From the IMG/VR virus record IMGVR_UViG_3300030104_006867, positions 1 through 37,028 of that record: 37,028 nt of DNA; one strand, 5' to 3'. This DNA comes from a virus. Shown here in pieces: positions 33-18,281 of the stretch. The translations under genes were made by a program, and so were the position numbers. Each line of letters starts with the position of its first letter. Position 1 is the first letter of the stretch. Under the pieces are notes generated by a model. The model was not told the origin of the DNA. It did not search any database and saw only the letters and a program-made list of their open reading frames with translations.

Positions 33-2645
33 TTATGATACGATCTGTGAACCAGATGCAGTGATTTCTAATCTATCTGCCACGTTTGCATATGCTCGAA
101 GTTTATATCCCGTTGCAAGGTACTTCGGTTGCTCACAAATCTCAATTGTTGAGTCAGCAGGGACCACCATATCATATACGAGATATGATTGAACATTATT
201 ACTTCCATCTGACCAGTAAACTCTTGCTTTTACGTCATTCGATCCATCATTGTTACAAAGAAGAATACTCTGAACAACAGAAGGATAAGAAGATGAAGTA
301 TAAAGATCAGTATCCGTAGCAGCAGAGGAAAGTGCGATCTGAGCATCCCAGAGAGCAGTATCCTCTTTTTCCTCTACAATAATGGTTGCTTCTAATGCTG
401 AGCTAGAACTTCCTTTAAGTTCAATTGTTTCACTTGGGCCTAGAACTTTTGGTTGCTTGAGCAATTCAACTGCTGAACCTGCAGGAACTGGTATGGTATG
501 TGCAAAGGAGAAGTTTGTTTGCATCTCACCACTAACCGTAACCTCAGATGCACTGATATTACATATATGAATAGAGTGAACCACTGTTCGGATAGTAGCA
601 GTTGCACTTGCAGTGTATGCAGTTGCCATTGATGCCGTAACATCATACTGAGTCGCACCACTGATACTAGTATTAAACTGACCAGAACCACCAGCAGCAA
701 TACCAGTAAGTTGTGAACCGTCACCAATGTAAGTTGTGACACCAACAGCAGATCCAACGGTTGCACCTGTTCCTACAGCATCCTTGGTAAAGATTACATT
801 CGCAATATTGGCCGAATCTCCACTGTTACCAATGTAGATCTTCCCACCCATGTTAGCATGAGAAGTACACTGATAGTAAAGTATATCAGGTGCATCAAAC
901 TGAACATCCCATTCTAAAGTTGTTCCATCACCAGCATCATTGTTAGTAACACCATCATTATATGCTGTTCCTGCTGAACCATTTGGATCACTTTGGATTC
1001 TAAATGGATGACCACCCGATGAGTTTACAAAGTTATATCTCTTTCCTCTCTGTAAGTATATTGTAGGATCACTCTCTGCTCCAGTAAGTCCTGGTCCATC
1101 GAAGGTGTAATGATCACTACCACTTGCACCTAAAGTCCATGAACCAAATGCACCAGAGAAACTAGTTGCATATTGAATACCACTAACCGTTGAGCCGACA
1201 CTTAGAGTCTCAAATTTTTTGGAATTATCATAATAGAGTTCTACGGCTCCGTCATGATTACATCTAAGAAACTCGTCACCATAATCACTCGCTTCAAAAT
1301 GAATATCGTCAGCAACTATCCTTAATTTGCCAGTGGTATTCCTAATAATACTATCTGTACGATCATGGTGGATGTCTAAATCTCCATCATTCCCGAATTT
1401 AGCTTTAACATTGTCCCTAAAGGTTAAGGTATCAGCAGAAGCATCAAATGTAATGGAGGTAACACCTGCCTGAGATCCTTGGAAGTTAACATCACTATTT
1501 TGGAACGTGCTAACACCACTGAGGACAACACCACCAAGAAGTTTTGCCTCAGTGCTTGTAATAATATTATCTGTAGACGCAACACCAGTTAGTCCTGAAC
1601 CATCACCAGTGATAACACCAACCACTGATATACCACTAGGATTGACTTCCAGTGACTTGGTTCCACCAGCAACAATGTTTACATGATCAGCAGCAGGTTG
1701 AATTAAACCAGTGTTTGGATCACCTGTAAAGAATATACTTGCTTGTGAAGTTGTACCACCAGTGTATCCAATCGCACCAAAAGCATTATCCCCATACTTA
1801 CTTAAAAACTTACCACCTTGATTAAATGGTGCAGCATCTACCCATTGAGCACTACTACTATCATCATAGTATATGAATAGTCTTGCTAGAGTTGAGTTAT
1901 ACCAGAGGTCACCATCACTAGGGCTTGAAGGGGCACTATCTGATGCAGTTACGGATGCTCCTCCTCCTCCACCACCTTGAATAAAGATAGTAGCAATACC
2001 AACATCAGTGTTGAACAACACATCACTAACACCTGTACCAACAAAATTGACTTGAGTGAAACCAAATCCAACTAATCCACTTGCACCTAGTCCATCACTA
2101 CCTGTGCTTCCGATACCAATTCCAAGACCTTTAAGTTGAGAACCATCACCAATATAAGTTATAACTCCTACAGCTCCCCCAATTGTTGCTCCTGTTCCCA
2201 CTGCGTCAGGAGTGATGACTAAATTTGCAACGGTGCTGATACCTGTATAGTTTAGATGAGTGCCGTTTGCTCTGGTTACAATACCAGTTGGAATATTCGC
2301 AGTGCCGATTACATCTAAACTACTTACGGTGGCAACTCCACTAATATAAAGTTCACTTAATGTGCCAAGACTTGGTATCGTTGTTACACCAGTTATATTT
2401 AAATTACCTACCTGTGCATTATGAGCAACAACAGTGGTAACAATACCCGTTGTGCCGTTAAGTGTAACTATTGTACCAACACCAGTTACACTTAAATCTG
2501 TTGCCGCTATACCACCGATTACGTCTAGATCTGTTGCAGGAATAGTGCTTCCAATACCAACCCTGTTGGTCGTTGCATCTGCAAATATTAGATCGGTGTT
2601 TACTTCTAAACCGTTCTTTACTACGAAATTCTTATTTACAGCCAT
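33..2645 (-). CDS. Tail-fibre-like virion protein with an embedded cupredoxin-like domain (870 aa)
   Basis: A large, low-complexity, Gly/Thr/Val-rich protein of the kind that forms cyanophage tail fibres. It contains repeated modules of the pattern VGVxTYIGDGSQLxG (two copies of a roughly 30-residue unit) and a related GDGSGLTG copy. Residues about 507-605 look like a small blue-copper domain: His546, then the cluster Cys593-x2-His596-x2-Met599, the same ligand order as plastocyanin and amicyanin. The C-terminal ~200 residues contain two similar beta-rich segments and may be a receptor-binding or trimerisation tip. A TATAAATA late promoter lies 32 bp before the ATG, so it is probably a late gene. 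The fibre role is inferred from composition and context. The copper-domain reading rests on visible ligand residues only. Confidence 0.7.
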   Translation of the reverse strand: MAVNKNFVVKNGLEVNTDLIFADATTNRVGIGSTIPATDLDVIGGIAATDLSVTGVGTIVTLNGTTGIVTTVVAHNAQVGNLNITGVTTIPSLGTLSELYISGVATVSSLDVIGTANIPTGIVTRANGTHLNYTGISTVANLVITPDAVGTGATIGGAVGVITYIGDGSQLKGLGIGIGSTGSDGLGASGLVGFGFTQVNFVGTGVSDVLFNTDVGIATIFIQGGGGGGASVTASDSAPSSPSDGDLWYNSTLARLFIYYDDSSSAQWVDAAPFNQGGKFLSKYGDNAFGAIGYTGGTTSQASIFFTGDPNTGLIQPAADHVNIVAGGTKSLEVNPSGISVVGVITGDGSGLTGVASTDNIITSTEAKLLGGVVLSGVSTFQNSDVNFQGSQAGVTSITFDASADTLTFRDNVKAKFGNDGDLDIHHDRTDSIIRNTTGKLRIVADDIHFEASDYGDEFLRCNHDGAVELYYDNSKKFETLSVGSTVSGIQYATSFSGAFGSWTLGASGSDHYTFDGPGLTGAESDPTIYLQRGKRYNFVNSSGGHPFRIQSDPNGSAGTAYNDGVTNNDAGDGTTLEWDVQFDAPDILYYQCTSHANMGGKIYIGNSGDSANIANVIFTKDAVGTGATVGSAVGVTTYIGDGSQLTGIAAGGSGQFNTSISGATQYDVTASMATAYTASATATIRTVVHSIHICNISASEVTVSGEMQTNFSFAHTIPVPAGSAVELLKQPKVLGPSETIELKGSSSSALEATIIVEEKEDTALWDAQIALSSAATDTDLYTSSSYPSVVQSILLCNNDGSNDVKARVYWSDGSNNVQSYLVYDMVVPADSTIEICEQPKYLATGYKLRAYANVADRLEITASGSQIVS
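703..789 (-). repeat. Repeat module copy 2 in the 870-aa fibre gene
   Basis: Encodes a module of the form DAVGTGATVGSAVGVTTYIG followed by DGSQLTG. It is a diverged copy of the module at 2131-2219. DNA identity is clearly visible, with most differences at third codon positions. Confidence 0.75.
2131..2219 (-). repeat. Repeat module copy 1 in the 870-aa fibre gene
   Basis: Encodes DAVGTGATIGGAVGVITYIG followed by DGSQLKG, paralogous to 703-789. A shorter related GDGSGLTG segment lies between the two, and another occurs in the 1962-aa protein (VVGIVTATSFKGDGSGL). Confidence 0.75.
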
Positions 2646-2676: not shown

Positions 2677-2684
2677 TATTTATA
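2677..2684 (-). promoter_or_regulatory. T4-type late promoter TATAAATA
   Basis: A perfect TATAAATA on the minus strand, overlapping the stop codon of the 522-aa gene and 32 bp upstream of the 870-aa fibre ATG. T4-like phages use this motif with the gp55/gp33 system for late transcription, and gp33 is encoded in this window. Confidence 0.7.
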
Positions 2685-4248
2685 CTGCTTCAATCTTAAT
2701 CGTACCTACTTTTTTATCGTTTCCTCCAACAGTTCCCGTGGCCGTCCCAAGTCCATCAAATCCAACTCCTCCTCTATTAATATTACCACCTAAAGCACCA
2801 CCTCCACCACCAGCAGAACCTCCACCACCAGCAGAACCAGCATTGAATTGATAGTTTAATCCTGCTTTATATCCTCTTATTACCGTAGAATTGTTAAAAT
2901 TAACAGTCTTTTGACCATCCTTTCCTGTAAAGAACGTCGTTGATCCAATAGATACACAAGGTGCGATTCCCTGAGTTTGCCAATAATCACCAATGGTACA
3001 TCTAGAAACTCTACCACCAGTGCTATTGTTAATCGCATCACTAAAATTAGTGGTGCTTCCTGCGTATAATCCTTCAAGTGTTAGGTTGGGATTAAATCCG
3101 ATACCACCCCCTGTGCCTGGTGTAGGAGAATTACCACCACTGCTACCACCAGATCCACCACCACATGCGACTAATAACTCACCTCCTTTATAGAAGAATG
3201 ATCCACCCCCACCTGCACCATTATTAGGATTTGGAGCATTGCCACCTGATGGCCATATTGCTGCACCTAAATTAGCAACATACTCTTGACCCTTTTCGAG
3301 TGTTAAATTAAACGTGCTTGTTCCACCATCCTTTCCTGTCTGCAAAGAACCATCCTCCCCTGCAGCACCTGCTAATGTTATCTTAACACTTATATCATCC
3401 TCTGGTGCATAAATTGAATATATTCTATTCCAATTTGATGTGACAGCGATACCTACTTCATCAGGAATTATTTCAAGGTCTTCATCTACTAAATCAACTT
3501 CTTGAGTGCTGTGTAAGGTGGCATTCACATCAAACTCTTCAATATAGAGAACCTTTCTGTCAGTTGAAGCAACAACATTAAAGTCAACTGTATCAGAATT
3601 CAATGGAGAATTAGATGCACTTGGATGAGATACAACACATCTAATCGTAGATACTCCTATAGTGTCTGAGGAGATAGTAAGGGAAGTGGTTGCTGATCCT
3701 GCAATAATGGTGCTATCAGTTAGATCACTACCATCTTGTTGCCACTGATAAACAAGAAGATTGTCTGTGCTATCGGTGGTTGTTGCTGTAATATTAAATT
3801 TAGCATTAGCATCAACAACAACGGTTGATATTCCTGGTTGTGATGTAATTGAGATGGTAGGTCTAACACCTAATCCTACTGTATCAGAAAGAAATGGTTG
3901 ATTTAAAGCAGTTCCTGTTGATCTACCAACACCATAAGCTGATGCCACATACTTTGTTTCCAAATAAAATTGCCTTCCAGTATCATCAGGGTCAACTAAT
4001 CCAGTTAGAGTAAGAGTGGTAGCGATACCAACATTAGCTGTTGATCCTGATCCTATCGCACCAACACCTATCTCATACCACTGATAAGATAAATGTCCTG
4101 TGCCTACAGGAGTTGCCGTGACAATTCCTGTAAAAGATACTGATGATTCAACAGTTACAATTCCTACAGGTTCTTGTAAAAATGATAATGTTGGTCCGTT
4201 TAGATCAAGAGTAGTGGGAACACTACGGAATACCTTAAATCCTATCAT
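2680..4248 (-). CDS. Ig-like and glycine-rich tail adhesin (522 aa)
   Basis: Residues about 17-108 and 130-230 look like two Ig-like beta-sandwich domains. Both have a YQW core, followed by the alternating hydrophobic strands usual for phage Ig-like decorations. From about residue 290 the protein becomes very glycine-rich (AGGGGSFFYKGGELLVACGG and later runs of G), ending in a short beta segment. This resembles the glycine-rich receptor-recognition domains of T-even adhesins and other phage tail tips. The ATG overlaps the stop of the upstream 1962-aa gene (ATGA), so the two are probably translationally coupled. A role in host recognition is inferred. It could instead be a baseplate-attached decoration. 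Confidence 0.65.
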   Translation of the reverse strand: MIGFKVFRSVPTTLDLNGPTLSFLQEPVGIVTVESSVSFTGIVTATPVGTGHLSYQWYEIGVGAIGSGSTANVGIATTLTLTGLVDPDDTGRQFYLETKYVASAYGVGRSTGTALNQPFLSDTVGLGVRPTISITSQPGISTVVVDANAKFNITATTTDSTDNLLVYQWQQDGSDLTDSTIIAGSATTSLTISSDTIGVSTIRCVVSHPSASNSPLNSDTVDFNVVASTDRKVLYIEEFDVNATLHSTQEVDLVDEDLEIIPDEVGIAVTSNWNRIYSIYAPEDDISVKITLAGAAGEDGSLQTGKDGGTSTFNLTLEKGQEYVANLGAAIWPSGGNAPNPNNGAGGGGSFFYKGGELLVACGGGSGGSSGGNSPTPGTGGGIGFNPNLTLEGLYAGSTTNFSDAINNSTGGRVSRCTIGDYWQTQGIAPCVSIGSTTFFTGKDGQKTVNFNNSTVIRGYKAGLNYQFNAGSAGGGGSAGGGGGALGGNINRGGVGFDGLGTATGTVGGNDKKVGTIKIEAV

Positions 4249-13392: not shown

Positions 13393-14022
13393 CTACCCTC
13401 CCACTATATTTTTTGCCAATTTTGTTATTGATTCAGTCCACTGAAGAATAGACAAGTTACCTGTACCAGGTATTCTAAGAGCATCAGCACCCTCAATAGT
13501 TTGAACATCACCACCCTCTATTTTAATATTACCTAAGGAGGCTACATTCATAGAATTTTTACCACTCACACCACAAGAGTCACCAGCGTCCATTTTAATT
13601 TTATCAGATTTTCCAACTATTTGAGACCCTCTAAGATTAACATAACCAGTTTCTTTTCCGTCACCAGTGGCAATTAAGTCTACGTTTTGAGCAGACAAAA
13701 CTATCTTTCCTCTCGGTGCATGAATAATCACATCTCCATTTTCAGCATACCATAATCCTGCCATACCATTATCAGATCCTGTATATGCAGCTGGTCTCTC
13801 GCCACACATAATTTCAAAGACAGCAGGAGCACTATTTATTATGCTACCCTTCAATTTACCAGTTTGTTGTAACCCAATATAATGAGCCCTTTTAAATCCC
13901 ATAGGAAAAATATTACGAAGCATCACAGACATCTTGGCATTATTTCTAGCGACAGCTCCAAGAAATAATCCACCCTCAGTGGTATTAAAATTTTGTTGTT
14001 GAGTTACTTTAGTTTGAGACAT
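13393..14022 (-). CDS. Beta-helical baseplate spike-like protein (209 aa)
   Basis: Residues about 96-185 have the short, alternating strand pattern of a beta-helical needle (DVIIHAPRGKIVLSAQNVDL, then repeated G-x-IK and NI-x-I turns). This resembles the C-terminal spike of T4 gp5 and VgrG proteins, but is encoded separately. The N-terminal part may bind the hub. It shares a TAATG junction with the gp5-like hub gene directly upstream, which supports a hub or spike role. No zinc- or iron-binding tip motif of the PAAR type is seen. Function is inferred from repeat pattern and position. Confidence 0.5.
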   Translation of the reverse strand: MSQTKVTQQQNFNTTEGGLFLGAVARNNAKMSVMLRNIFPMGFKRAHYIGLQQTGKLKGSIINSAPAVFEIMCGERPAAYTGSDNGMAGLWYAENGDVIIHAPRGKIVLSAQNVDLIATGDGKETGYVNLRGSQIVGKSDKIKMDAGDSCGVSGKNSMNVASLGNIKIEGGDVQTIEGADALRIPGTGNLSILQWTESITKLAKNIVGG

Positions 14023-17000
14023 TATCTAACGGTGGTTCGAGCAGCAGGGCCAACATTTCCAACACAATCAACCACCTGCACAACAGGGGTTTCAGGATCA
14101 GCATCAGGAATTTGATCTGGTCTGAGACATTTTATGACAGGGATCAAAACAGCATTGTATCCAGTACTGGTATTTATTCTAACATCTGGCATTGATGTAA
14201 ATCCAGCACCAGATCTTGTAACGGTTATGTTTTGAATTCTACCATCAGACCTTGATATCACTGCTTGAGCACCATTATCAGGAATAATTTCAACGGTGTC
14301 ATTTACAGGATCATATCCAAATCCCTCATTGTCTATTACTATTTCATCTAATGTGCAAATCAAAGGATAAGTTGGTGTTTTTGTGTCATCAAAATCCTCT
14401 GGTATTGTTGAAGGGCAAGCAGGTGCTGAAAGTGTAACAGATATATCACCATTTCCAAAAGTTCCCCAATCCTCATCATCCATGAGATCTTTCATTATAT
14501 CATCAAGATTTAAATTCTTTCCTTTTCCATTAGTGTTATTTGCGAGGAAGTTTCTTATGTCAGCGTCTGTGTATCCCAAGAACTTAGCTCTTGTATAATC
14601 CTTTGTGTATCCAAAGTATAGATCACCATCACCATTATTACTTCTGTTTATATTTAGAACATTATATGATAAAATACTGTAAAAAGTCTCTGCTGATACT
14701 TTATTAGCAACTGGATATGGATCAAGAGATGATTTTATAATTTGATTGTAAGGATTTCTAACTACAAAAGCAACTCCAGCAGGATTAAAATCCCACAAAT
14801 TAGTAGTAGCTAATTTTTCGGGATCTTTATGTGGTAAATTTTCAATCGTAACCGTCAATTGATGAATTCCAGGTTCAACGTCACCAGCATAAGCAGCAAA
14901 AATAGACACGTTATGAGATTGGAACTCTGTTGTTTGAGCCAATTCAACTCCATCCCAAGAGACTGTTGCTTTATTATCTGATTGAAATTCAATTTGATAT
15001 TTTCCACCAAAAGTGGCATCGATCTCCCAAATTGCAGTGTGTGCTCCAAGTAATGCCTTTGTGTTTGATGGATACACCGCATAATTTTTCATGAAGGGTG
15101 ACCATAAACCTTCAACACCTCTAGGGAGATTATCAGCTGACCTCACCCAAGGAGTTTGTTGTGCGATGGGATCAATTCTTGGGTCATCTTTCAAGTTACC
15201 AACTCTATACAAAATATTATTGTCTTGATCATAAATTTGAGGTATCTCGGTAAGACTAGTTTGAGTAAAAGTTCCCACAGTTTCATTATTATATCTAAAT
15301 TTCCATTCATCATCAAGAATAGAATTATCATTAGGATTTGTATCTGTTTGTTCGACACCAAACTTCTCCCAATCCCACCTTTCATCTATTAGAGCGATGT
15401 TAGTAAAGTCAACCGTTCTATCTCCAGTTGTATTTAAACCAACAGGAAAATTCTTCATGTCATTTAATACAATGCCACCAGTTGATCCGATCCCAGTTAT
15501 GGTGCATCCTGGCAAGTCATTCTCGTTAAAACCATCATCAATACAAACTATCGGTTTTCCTGGTAATTGTATACAGTCACCATAGTATAAAATGATAATA
15601 TCATCGTAATTAAATCTAACCCAATCACCATTTCTTCTTTGAACAACAGTTTGGCATCGATTAGCCCATGTTCTATTCATTCCACCAGTAGACCCATCTG
15701 GTCGGAACATGTATCCATATCCACCATCACGAATTACAACTTTGGTTACACCCACAACTGTATCTTCAGTGTCTGTATCAACACTTGATATGATGTTTAC
15801 AATATCTCCAACTTCATATGAGGATCCTTTATTATTGATCGATAGTAAAGTGATACCTCCAGTATCAACGGTTTCAATATCAAGAGTTAATCCAGATCCA
15901 CTACCACCAGTTGTGCTTTGATTAGTTGATCCTGCTACATATCCACTACCACCAACTAAATTCTTTAATGTCAAAGCACCACCACTTGCATCGACGGTCT
16001 CGATCTCGACAGTTGCATTTTTACCATTCCTGTTAAATCCTACAAAATCTGGATCGTCAATTACATTTATTTTGGCTCCCATACCAGAGTGGTTTATACA
16101 ATAATAATATAAGGTATTTGGTGTATTGTTGTTGACGATTATTCTAGAATACGCAATCTCTGTTCCAGGTATTCCATCAATAGTAACTCCCCTTTCATAC
16201 TCTACACCACCATTCCAAGTTCCATTATCTGTCTCAGAAAATCTCAATTGATGAGTTTTATTTGTCTCATCCTGTTGATCAAAAATATATGTATTGCCTC
16301 TAATAAATGTTAATACTCTTTGTTGTCTACCATCAACGACATATTTATTACCACCACTTGTTTTTTTAACAGTAACAATAAATGTCACTCCTATCCCCGT
16401 CCCAGATCCTTGACCAAATTGACCTCCAGTTAATTCACCACCAGTGCCATCACCAATTGTTGTTCCTGCTCCAACATTTGTAGTTCCTATTCCTGTTCCG
16501 ATTCGAGTAGTTTTACCAATACTGACATCACCCCATCCCCCTCTTCCACGACCACATCTATCATCAAATTCAACGTTAGGTGTTGAAGAATATTCTCCAG
16601 GTAAAATTATATCAACACTGAATAATGATCCTGCTGTATCAACAATGGCATTGCCAGTGGCACCTGATCCATTTCCTCCCCAGAAAAGAACATCTGGTAA
16701 TCCACATAACAAAGGCCCTGTGTCGCACTTTTGTCCAGTAATATCTACTGCAGTATCAAGAGCATCTTGAGGATCAAAGAAGAATTCATATTTCTCAATA
16801 TCATCAGGAACATTTGTTATATCTCTAAACTTTTGTCCAACTTTTTTTGCTTTATCAAATACACTTTTAATATCAATTTTAATTTTATTTGGTTTACCCC
16901 CATCTATTGGATTCCATGCACTTGCCTCCTCAGGGCCACCTTGAGTAAATTCGCATCTTAAAAGTGATAAAATAGATTCTAATACATCACCAATGGCATT

Positions 17001-18281
17001 TAAAAAATCAACTCCTGCTAGTGCAAATCCAGATAACTTACTCATTATCCCAGTTATACCACCCAACACCCCTTGAATTAATGCGGATATTTGTCCTACT
17101 ATTTGACCTATAAATGTTCCTACAAAATTTTCAATTAAACATGAAGTTACATTTACTATTTTGTCAAATACAACCTCTATCGCATTTCTTATCAAATCTC
17201 CTAGATTAGCTATCAACAAGTTAAAAGCACAAGATATTCCTTTTAAAATTAATGCTATTATTTCATTTTGTTTGAATCTCCCTGTCGCTGGAAAAGCACC
17301 CTTGACTGCATTCCATATTGAGTTGAATTGTGCAAGTAATTTTTCTTTTACATTTTCAATTATTTCTTTCATCCACTCTGCCATCTGTTTGGCACCCTTA
17401 TTTATTTCATCCTGAAAAGAATCTAAACTCTCTTGTGCTGCGTTAAGATTACCAATTCCAACTCTAAGTAAACCGCCTAATCCTGTGGTTGATAGTCCTA
17501 TAGGTATACCATCTGCACCAGTGCCTCTTGGATTACCGTTTTCATCAAAACCTAAACTTTGATTAAAATTTAAAAGTTTTGCCTTTAGAAGATCAATATT
17601 TTTAATTACCCCCTCAAATGCTTTACCAATTCCCACGACAGAATTATCACTATTATCTTTGCCCTTAACTGTAGGGATTACAATATCAGGGTCTAAAGCA
17701 AATGAATCTTGATTCCAATCAAATAGACTTGCATCAGTATAATTGTATATCTCTCCGAAATTTTTACCCGATAAATTTGCATACCCAGTCCAAGCCTCAT
17801 TGTAAAGGGTGTTTGGAATTAAAAATGCTTGAGTAGTAAGATCAAATCCACTAACGGGTTCATACTTCGTAGTTTTCTTTATCTGTGGATCTGATATGGT
17901 ATTCGGAACAACCCTGTCAATAAAATATTCTTCCGTGTCAGTGTCCATGTAAACATAAACATAACTTCCACGAGGGAGAATTTGATTCCCTGTGGACTCA
18001 CCCCTTAACCCTGATGTGTGATATTGAGGATATGCCCAAGAAAATCCTCCAGTCGGAACAAATTTCCCGTCATCCTCAGTAAATAATTTTATTTTGTATC
18101 GAGGATATATTACCTTAGGGTTTGGATTATCCTCACCATCATTATATTTTGTCTTTTGAAGAGTCTCTATGTAACTTGCATTATCATCTATCTGAGCTAA
18201 CTCTAGCTTTGTTTTGCCAGTGTGCTCTTCAATAAGTTTTTTTATTAACCTAGCTTGTTGAGAATCTAAATTAATCGTCAT
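14022..18281 (-). CDS. Giant gp5-like baseplate hub protein with cupredoxin and PA14-like domains (1419 aa)
   Basis: Residues 58-125 look like the OB-fold of phage hub proteins: YPRYKIKLFTEDDG, then GGFSWAYPQ, a Gly-rich loop and ILPRGSYVYVYMD. Residues about 290-450 are hydrophobic and helical (IGQIVGQISALIQGVLGGIT), unusual for a hub. Residues about 640-740 form a cupredoxin-like domain with His677 and Cys728-x2-His731-x2-Met734. Residues about 1080-1170 resemble a PA14/lectin beta-sandwich (KYQIEFQSDNKATVSWDG, then GIHQLTVTIEN). No lysozyme domain is visible, unlike T4 gp5. The start ATG lies inside the last codons of the CP12-like gene upstream (11-nt overlap). It follows the gp27-like gene, matching a hub role. 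The gp5 assignment is an inference from fold pattern and order. Confidence 0.6.
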   Translation of the reverse strand: MTINLDSQQARLIKKLIEEHTGKTKLELAQIDDNASYIETLQKTKYNDGEDNPNPKVIYPRYKIKLFTEDDGKFVPTGGFSWAYPQYHTSGLRGESTGNQILPRGSYVYVYMDTDTEEYFIDRVVPNTISDPQIKKTTKYEPVSGFDLTTQAFLIPNTLYNEAWTGYANLSGKNFGEIYNYTDASLFDWNQDSFALDPDIVIPTVKGKDNSDNSVVGIGKAFEGVIKNIDLLKAKLLNFNQSLGFDENGNPRGTGADGIPIGLSTTGLGGLLRVGIGNLNAAQESLDSFQDEINKGAKQMAEWMKEIIENVKEKLLAQFNSIWNAVKGAFPATGRFKQNEIIALILKGISCAFNLLIANLGDLIRNAIEVVFDKIVNVTSCLIENFVGTFIGQIVGQISALIQGVLGGITGIMSKLSGFALAGVDFLNAIGDVLESILSLLRCEFTQGGPEEASAWNPIDGGKPNKIKIDIKSVFDKAKKVGQKFRDITNVPDDIEKYEFFFDPQDALDTAVDITGQKCDTGPLLCGLPDVLFWGGNGSGATGNAIVDTAGSLFSVDIILPGEYSSTPNVEFDDRCGRGRGGWGDVSIGKTTRIGTGIGTTNVGAGTTIGDGTGGELTGGQFGQGSGTGIGVTFIVTVKKTSGGNKYVVDGRQQRVLTFIRGNTYIFDQQDETNKTHQLRFSETDNGTWNGGVEYERGVTIDGIPGTEIAYSRIIVNNNTPNTLYYYCINHSGMGAKINVIDDPDFVGFNRNGKNATVEIETVDASGGALTLKNLVGGSGYVAGSTNQSTTGGSGSGLTLDIETVDTGGITLLSINNKGSSYEVGDIVNIISSVDTDTEDTVVGVTKVVIRDGGYGYMFRPDGSTGGMNRTWANRCQTVVQRRNGDWVRFNYDDIIILYYGDCIQLPGKPIVCIDDGFNENDLPGCTITGIGSTGGIVLNDMKNFPVGLNTTGDRTVDFTNIALIDERWDWEKFGVEQTDTNPNDNSILDDEWKFRYNNETVGTFTQTSLTEIPQIYDQDNNILYRVGNLKDDPRIDPIAQQTPWVRSADNLPRGVEGLWSPFMKNYAVYPSNTKALLGAHTAIWEIDATFGGKYQIEFQSDNKATVSWDGVELAQTTEFQSHNVSIFAAYAGDVEPGIHQLTVTIENLPHKDPEKLATTNLWDFNPAGVAFVVRNPYNQIIKSSLDPYPVANKVSAETFYSILSYNVLNINRSNNGDGDLYFGYTKDYTRAKFLGYTDADIRNFLANNTNGKGKNLNLDDIMKDLMDDEDWGTFGNGDISVTLSAPACPSTIPEDFDDTKTPTYPLICTLDEIVIDNEGFGYDPVNDTVEIIPDNGAQAVISRSDGRIQNITVTRSGAGFTSMPDVRINTSTGYNAVLIPVIKCLRPDQIPDADPETPVVQVVDCVGNVGPAARTTVR

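What the first reader, a model, noticed from the sequence alone, without database searches (positions are those of the whole stretch)
830..1130. Cupredoxin-like domain with complete type-1 copper ligands in a tail fibre
Residues about 507-605 of the 870-aa fibre have His546 and Cys593-x2-His596-x2-Met599, the plastocyanin/amicyanin ligand order, in the expected beta context. A copper site in a virion fibre would be unusual: it might bind copper, stabilise the fold, or mimic a host electron carrier.
Basis: partly seen in the sequence, partly recalled or inferred. Interest (0 to 1): 0.74.

Follow-up and report, generated by a model that had tools for sequence, protein, structure and literature searches.

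The report
Copper-protein fold in marine phage fibre
A tail-fibre protein of a marine cyanobacterial virus carries a module built like the blue copper proteins, with all four copper-holding residues; the same module, nearly always intact, occurs in tail proteins of hundreds of marine viruses, so their particles may carry copper, although nobody has measured it.

Summary
The 870-aa fibre (window 33-2645, -) holds a cupredoxin domain (825-1142, -) with His546 and Cys593-x2-His596-x2-Met599. AlphaFold2 is confident (pLDDT 95.2), the PDB fold matches are cupredoxins, and the family profile recalls plastocyanin, amicyanin and copper nitrite reductase. A second domain with the full ligand set lies in another virion ORF (16056-16364, -).

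The domain is a common module of marine phages: 351 of 50,697 phage records, nearly all cyanophages, a few Pelagibacter and Methylophilales phages. Of 282 different complete copies, 280 keep the set (276 HCHM, 4 with axial Leu); two lose His, Cys and His together. Most copies have one Cys, so a disulfide does not explain it. Copper binding is very likely but unmeasured.

The nearest cellular relatives are C-terminal domains of bacterial proteins (one with a CHRD domain), not plastocyanin, so electron-carrier mimicry is disfavoured. Best reading: a copper-locked beta-sandwich module for fibre stability or host contact; redox- or light-gated adsorption and copper cargo remain open. No description was found in the open-access library.

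The parts
33..2645 (-). 870-aa tail-fibre protein (P0001) of a T4-like marine cyanophage
   Evidence: PHROG tail-fibre families; neighbours are T4-like tail genes
825..1142 (-). cupredoxin domain of the fibre, about residues 502-607
   Evidence: extent from the A6 profile match (E-value by construction, it is a row of A6); independently PHROG_677 9e-35, AF2 pLDDT 95.2, PDB fold matches to copper proteins
1008..1010 (-). His546, first copper ligand
   Evidence: aligns with the N-terminal His ligand of plastocyanin
867..869 (-). Cys593, thiolate ligand
   Evidence: alignment with plastocyanin; conserved in 33 of 35 non-redundant copies
858..860 (-). His596, second His ligand
849..851 (-). Met599, axial ligand (Leu in 4 different copies)
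2127..2207 (-). fibre linker repeat, first copy (residues 147-173, DAVGTGATIGGAVGVITYIGDGSQLKG)
702..782 (-). same linker repeat just C-terminal of the cupredoxin domain (residues 622-648)
14022..18281 (-). 1419-aa virion ORF carrying the second cupredoxin-like domain
   Evidence: PHROG hits to tail lysozyme and baseplate families
16056..16364 (-). second cupredoxin-like domain (C-x2-H-x2-M plus upstream His)
   Evidence: H, C, H and M invariant in 37 aligned rows; AF2 pLDDT 88.2; PDB fold matches mixed Ig-like and plastocyanin, none at E<=0.001
16251..16253 (-). His677 of the 1419-aa ORF, predicted ligand
16080..16100 (-). Cys728-x2-His731-x2-Met734 of the 1419-aa ORF, predicted ligands

Best explanation
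The fibre carries a genuine cupredoxin module with a type-1 copper site of amicyanin-like spacing. Shown by sequence and fold prediction: the fold, the ligand set and strong conservation of the ligands. Inferred: each subunit binds one copper ion through His546, Cys593, His596 and Met599, and copper locks a compact Greek-key beta-sandwich. Inferred and least certain: the module is an outward-facing unit of fibre and baseplate proteins, shuffled between positions, that gives a stable surface for contact with the host or with other virion parts. Copper would be taken up in the host or from seawater after lysis.
For: AF2 pLDDT 95.2, pTM 0.88; the 50 listed PDB fold matches are cupredoxins, multicopper oxidases or other cupredoxin-fold proteins. 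Profile against PDB sequences: CuNIR 7e-5, plastocyanin 1e-4, amicyanin 2e-3. Retrieval with segments that exclude the ligands, plus tblastn of phages: 35 non-redundant copies, median identity 43%, 33 keep HCHM and the two exceptions lose His, Cys and His together; 31 of 35 have one Cys, so no disulfide within the domain. Over all sources 280 of 282 different complete copies keep the set. Axial Leu, seen in 4, is a known type-1 variant (own knowledge). The module sits at different places: end of gp9-like proteins, start of fibres, middle of others; here a fibre linker repeat follows it directly and another copy lies upstream.
Against: No metal measurement exists. PF00127 scores 16.5 to 17.1 bits, below its 21.2 cut-off. 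TM-scores to solved cupredoxins are only 0.42-0.59. Ligand geometry was not measured. Some cyanophages do without the domain (P-SSP7). Nothing here tests stability, surface exposure or host contact.
Confidence: 0.55

Rival explanations
1. The site is a redox switch: the oxidation state of copper, set by light, superoxide or the cell surface, changes fibre conformation or affinity and so gates adsorption.
For: Some cyanophages do not adsorb in the dark (PMC7238727); model fits suggest near-zero dark adsorption of P-HM2 but not of P-SSP7 (PMC7112961). P-HM2 has five domain matches, some weak, and P-SSP7 none.
Against: P-HM1 has about as many matches and its dark behaviour could not be read here (one search failed). 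S-PM2, light-dependent by my own recollection of Jia et al. 2010, has one weak match. Podovirus and myovirus differ in much else. The domain also occurs in phages of non-photosynthetic hosts.
Confidence: 0.12
2. Copper cargo: the fibre presents copper that a host surface protein for copper uptake recognises, as proposed for iron in HxH fibres.
For: The same idea exists for iron-binding HxH motifs of phage tail fibres (PMC11705849). The module is found in marine phages, where trace metals are scarce.
Against: A buried type-1 site does not release or display copper easily (own knowledge). No receptor is known.
Confidence: 0.1
3. The ligands are kept but the site holds zinc or no metal in the virion; the residues are conserved for folding or assembly.
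For: No metal data. Type-1 sites expressed in bacteria can be filled with zinc (own knowledge).
Against: His, Cys and His, about 50 residues apart, are kept together and lost together; axial Leu is tolerated, as in copper sites.
Confidence: 0.15
4. The copper site protects the virion, for instance by reacting with superoxide or sequestering toxic copper near the host.
For: Surface-ocean setting; copper sites can react with superoxide (own knowledge). No tool result bears on it directly.
Against: No direct evidence; few copies per virion expected.
Confidence: 0.05
5. The domain mimics host plastocyanin and docks to its partners.
For: Same fold and ligand order; hosts are mostly cyanobacteria.
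Against: 2-7 bits against phage plastocyanin versus 51-114 bits against bacterial relatives; present in phages of Pelagibacter and Methylophilales; several of these phages carry a separate true plastocyanin gene.
Confidence: 0.03

Closest known systems
Type-1 cupredoxins (amicyanin, plastocyanin, rusticyanin, type-1 domain of copper nitrite reductase)
   Same: Fold, ligand order and aligned ligand positions, amicyanin-like C-x2-H-x2-M loop
   Different: Part of a virion structural protein, no known redox partner; sequence below the Pfam cut-off; copper not shown
PHROG_677, gp9-like baseplate wedge tail fibre connector of T4-like cyanophages
   Same: Its C-terminal domain is this domain (9e-35)
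   Different: Here the domain lies inside an 870-aa fibre, not at the end of a roughly 400-aa connector; the PHROG description does not mention copper
C-terminal domains of bacterial proteins in Flavobacteriaceae, Rhodanobacteraceae and others
   Same: Same domain, 39-57% identity, all ligands kept in the 31 copies found
   Different: Cellular proteins where the contig is truly bacterial; one has a CHRD domain; function unknown too
HxH iron-binding phage fibres (T4 gp37 type)
   Same: Metal site proposed in a tail fibre (PMC11705849)
   Different: Different fold, metal and ligands; no HxH in this fibre

Membership tests
type-1 cupredoxin | Greek-key cupredoxin fold | tested here: met
   AF2 pLDDT 95.2; Foldseek against PDB: 68 matches at E<=0.001, the listed ones all cupredoxin-fold, TMq 0.42-0.59
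type-1 cupredoxin | His ... Cys-x2-His-x(2-4)-Met ligands | tested here: met
type-1 cupredoxin | ligand side chains clustered at bonding distance | not testable with these tools
   no coordinates are returned; only the sequence alignment of ligands with plastocyanin
type-1 cupredoxin | binds copper, blue colour, redox activity | not testable with these tools
   needs purified protein
Pfam PF00127 Copper-bind | score over the gathering cut-off of 21.2 bits | tested here: not met
   16.5, 16.8, 17.1 bits; not filed as a member of this Pfam family
Plastocyanin (petE) | specific similarity to cyanobacterial or phage plastocyanin | tested here: not met
   2-7 bits against phage-borne plastocyanins
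PHROG_677 gp9-like connector | match over the C-terminal domain | tested here: met
   121.8 bits, profile positions 306-409 of 412
PHROG_677 gp9-like connector | whole protein is a roughly 400-aa connector ending in this domain | tested here: not met
   870 aa with more than 260 aa after the domain; the protein is a fibre that shares the module

The most novel reading that the evidence does not exclude
Marine phage virions are copper proteins: one or more type-1 sites per fibre or baseplate subunit make the tail redox-active, and the redox or light state of copper gates adsorption to the host.
Probability: 0.1. Interest if true: 0.92.

Novelty: new variant of a known kind. Interest (0 to 1): 0.68.

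Why it matters
If the sites are filled, many marine cyanophage particles carry stoichiometric copper, which would add a metal to virion chemistry and to the ocean copper budget, and give a concrete, mutable handle on fibre function. No paper I could find describes type-1 copper in a virion structural protein. It also shows that an annotated connector family (gp9-like) has an unrecognised, strongly conserved metal site.

Tried and rejected
Chance motif: 0.01 expected, 2 seen. Disulfide as the reason for the Cys: single Cys in 31 of 35 copies. Retrieval bias (the first scan used ligand peptides as seeds): repeated with ligand-free segments. Plastocyanin capture from the host: rejected by scores. 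Plasmid spread: no match in plasmids. A light-adsorption correlation was considered and left open because P-HM1 and P-HM2 look alike. Viral and cellular copies interleave in the tree, but few columns make it weak.

Full report
Observation. The fibre ORF is 33..2645 (-), 870 aa. C-x2-H-x2-M is seen twice in 22 window proteins against 0.01 expected, both with an upstream His.

Setting. Neighbours include gp32, gp59, gp53, a baseplate tail tube cap, PhoH, ThyX and a transaldolase. The gp32-like protein is closest to single-cell marine virus records and then to Synechococcus T4-like phages. The window is a fragment of a T4-like marine cyanophage; the host is inferred.

Fold. From 44 rows of window and IMG/VR loci AlphaFold2 gave pLDDT 95.2, pTM 0.88. 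All 50 PDB matches listed are copper nitrite reductases, rusticyanins, plastocyanins, multicopper oxidases or other cupredoxin-fold chains such as factor V and a chain of a respiratory supercomplex; TMq is 0.42-0.59. Predicted structures of viral proteins match at TMq up to 0.96 in P-SSM2, S-SCSM1 and S-SKS1. The family profile recalls type-1 copper proteins, and its alignment to plastocyanin places all four ligands on the known ones. Pfam PF00127 stays below its cut-off.

Distribution. tblastn finds 351 of 50,697 phage records at E<=0.01: 267 Synechococcus, 55 cyanophage, 19 Prochlorococcus, 4 marine, 4 Methylophilales, 1 Pelagibacter, 1 uncultured. The gp32 of this window finds 377 Synechococcus and 61 cyanophage records, so the domain is in a large share of such phages; this is a rough comparison. 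It forms the end of gp9-like connectors and parts of other fibres. In whole records 24 of 25 named phages have at least one match and P-SSP7 none; some matches are weak or partial. Most of the 25 were chosen because they hit, so this is not a prevalence.

Ligand conservation. The first viral scan used ligand peptides as seeds, so I repeated it with segments before and between the ligands. With the tblastn phage hits this gives 135 different copies and 35 at 70% identity; 33 keep HCHM, one is FAVM, one DRTI. Over all loci there are 285 different copies of 80 aa or more: 276 HCHM, 4 HCHL, 3 cut off before the Cys, FATM and FAVM one each. That profile was built without the two ligand-less rows and may miss some degenerate copies; one search shows a few such weak matches.

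Second domain. Window 16056-16364 (-) in a 1419-aa virion ORF has H677, C728, H731 and M734. In 37 aligned rows these four are invariant, but that scan had a ligand peptide among its seeds. AF2 pLDDT is 88.2. Its PDB fold matches mix Ig-like domains and plastocyanins with none at E<=0.001, so its assignment rests on the profile and the ligands.

Relatives in cells. 28 genome contigs have relatives, all 31 copies with HCHM; one of the two search patterns included the Cys-His loop, so this is partly by construction. One Flavobacteriaceae-type protein has a CHRD domain over its cut-off. Some contigs are probably phage DNA: the L129 protein is nearly identical to gp9 of phage S-SSM7 (L092; sequences; tree). 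Whether the bacterial proteins are secreted was not tested.

Mechanism. Shown: fold prediction, ligand set, conservation. Inferred: copper, stability, host contact. No paper on this was found in the open-access library, which lacks most subscription journals; the light-adsorption papers only motivate a test. Against plastocyanin mimicry stand the scores and the non-photosynthetic hosts.

Noticed in passing
window 16056-16364 (-): Second cupredoxin-like domain with full ligand set in a 1419-aa virion ORF.
   Followed up: yes
window 2680-4248 (-): 522-aa ORF next to the fibre with a glycine-rich C-terminal half, resembling glycine-rich phage adhesins (resemblance from memory).
   Followed up: no
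L081:3420-3719 and L094:2977-3276 (phage S-B43): Tail-fibre copies that lost His, Cys and His together but kept the rest of the domain, a natural ligand-free control.
   Followed up: partly
L129:1643-2395: A contig filed under a Gammaproteobacteria MAG encodes a protein almost identical to phage S-SSM7 gp9: probably phage DNA binned into the MAG.
   Followed up: no
L108-L110, L113-L115, L117, L118, L120, L121, L123, L124: Flavobacteriaceae proteins end in the same cupredoxin domain; the one tested (L109) has a CHRD domain, and no Pfam cupredoxin family passes its cut-off on the domain.
   Followed up: partly
BFVD matches: 'Beta-sandwich proteins' of pithovirus-like and marseillevirus-like metagenomic viruses match the fold.
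   Followed up: no
L104, L105, L107: Planctomycetota, Neomarinimicrobiota and Rickettsiales MAG contigs with close copies, not checked for being phage.
   Followed up: no
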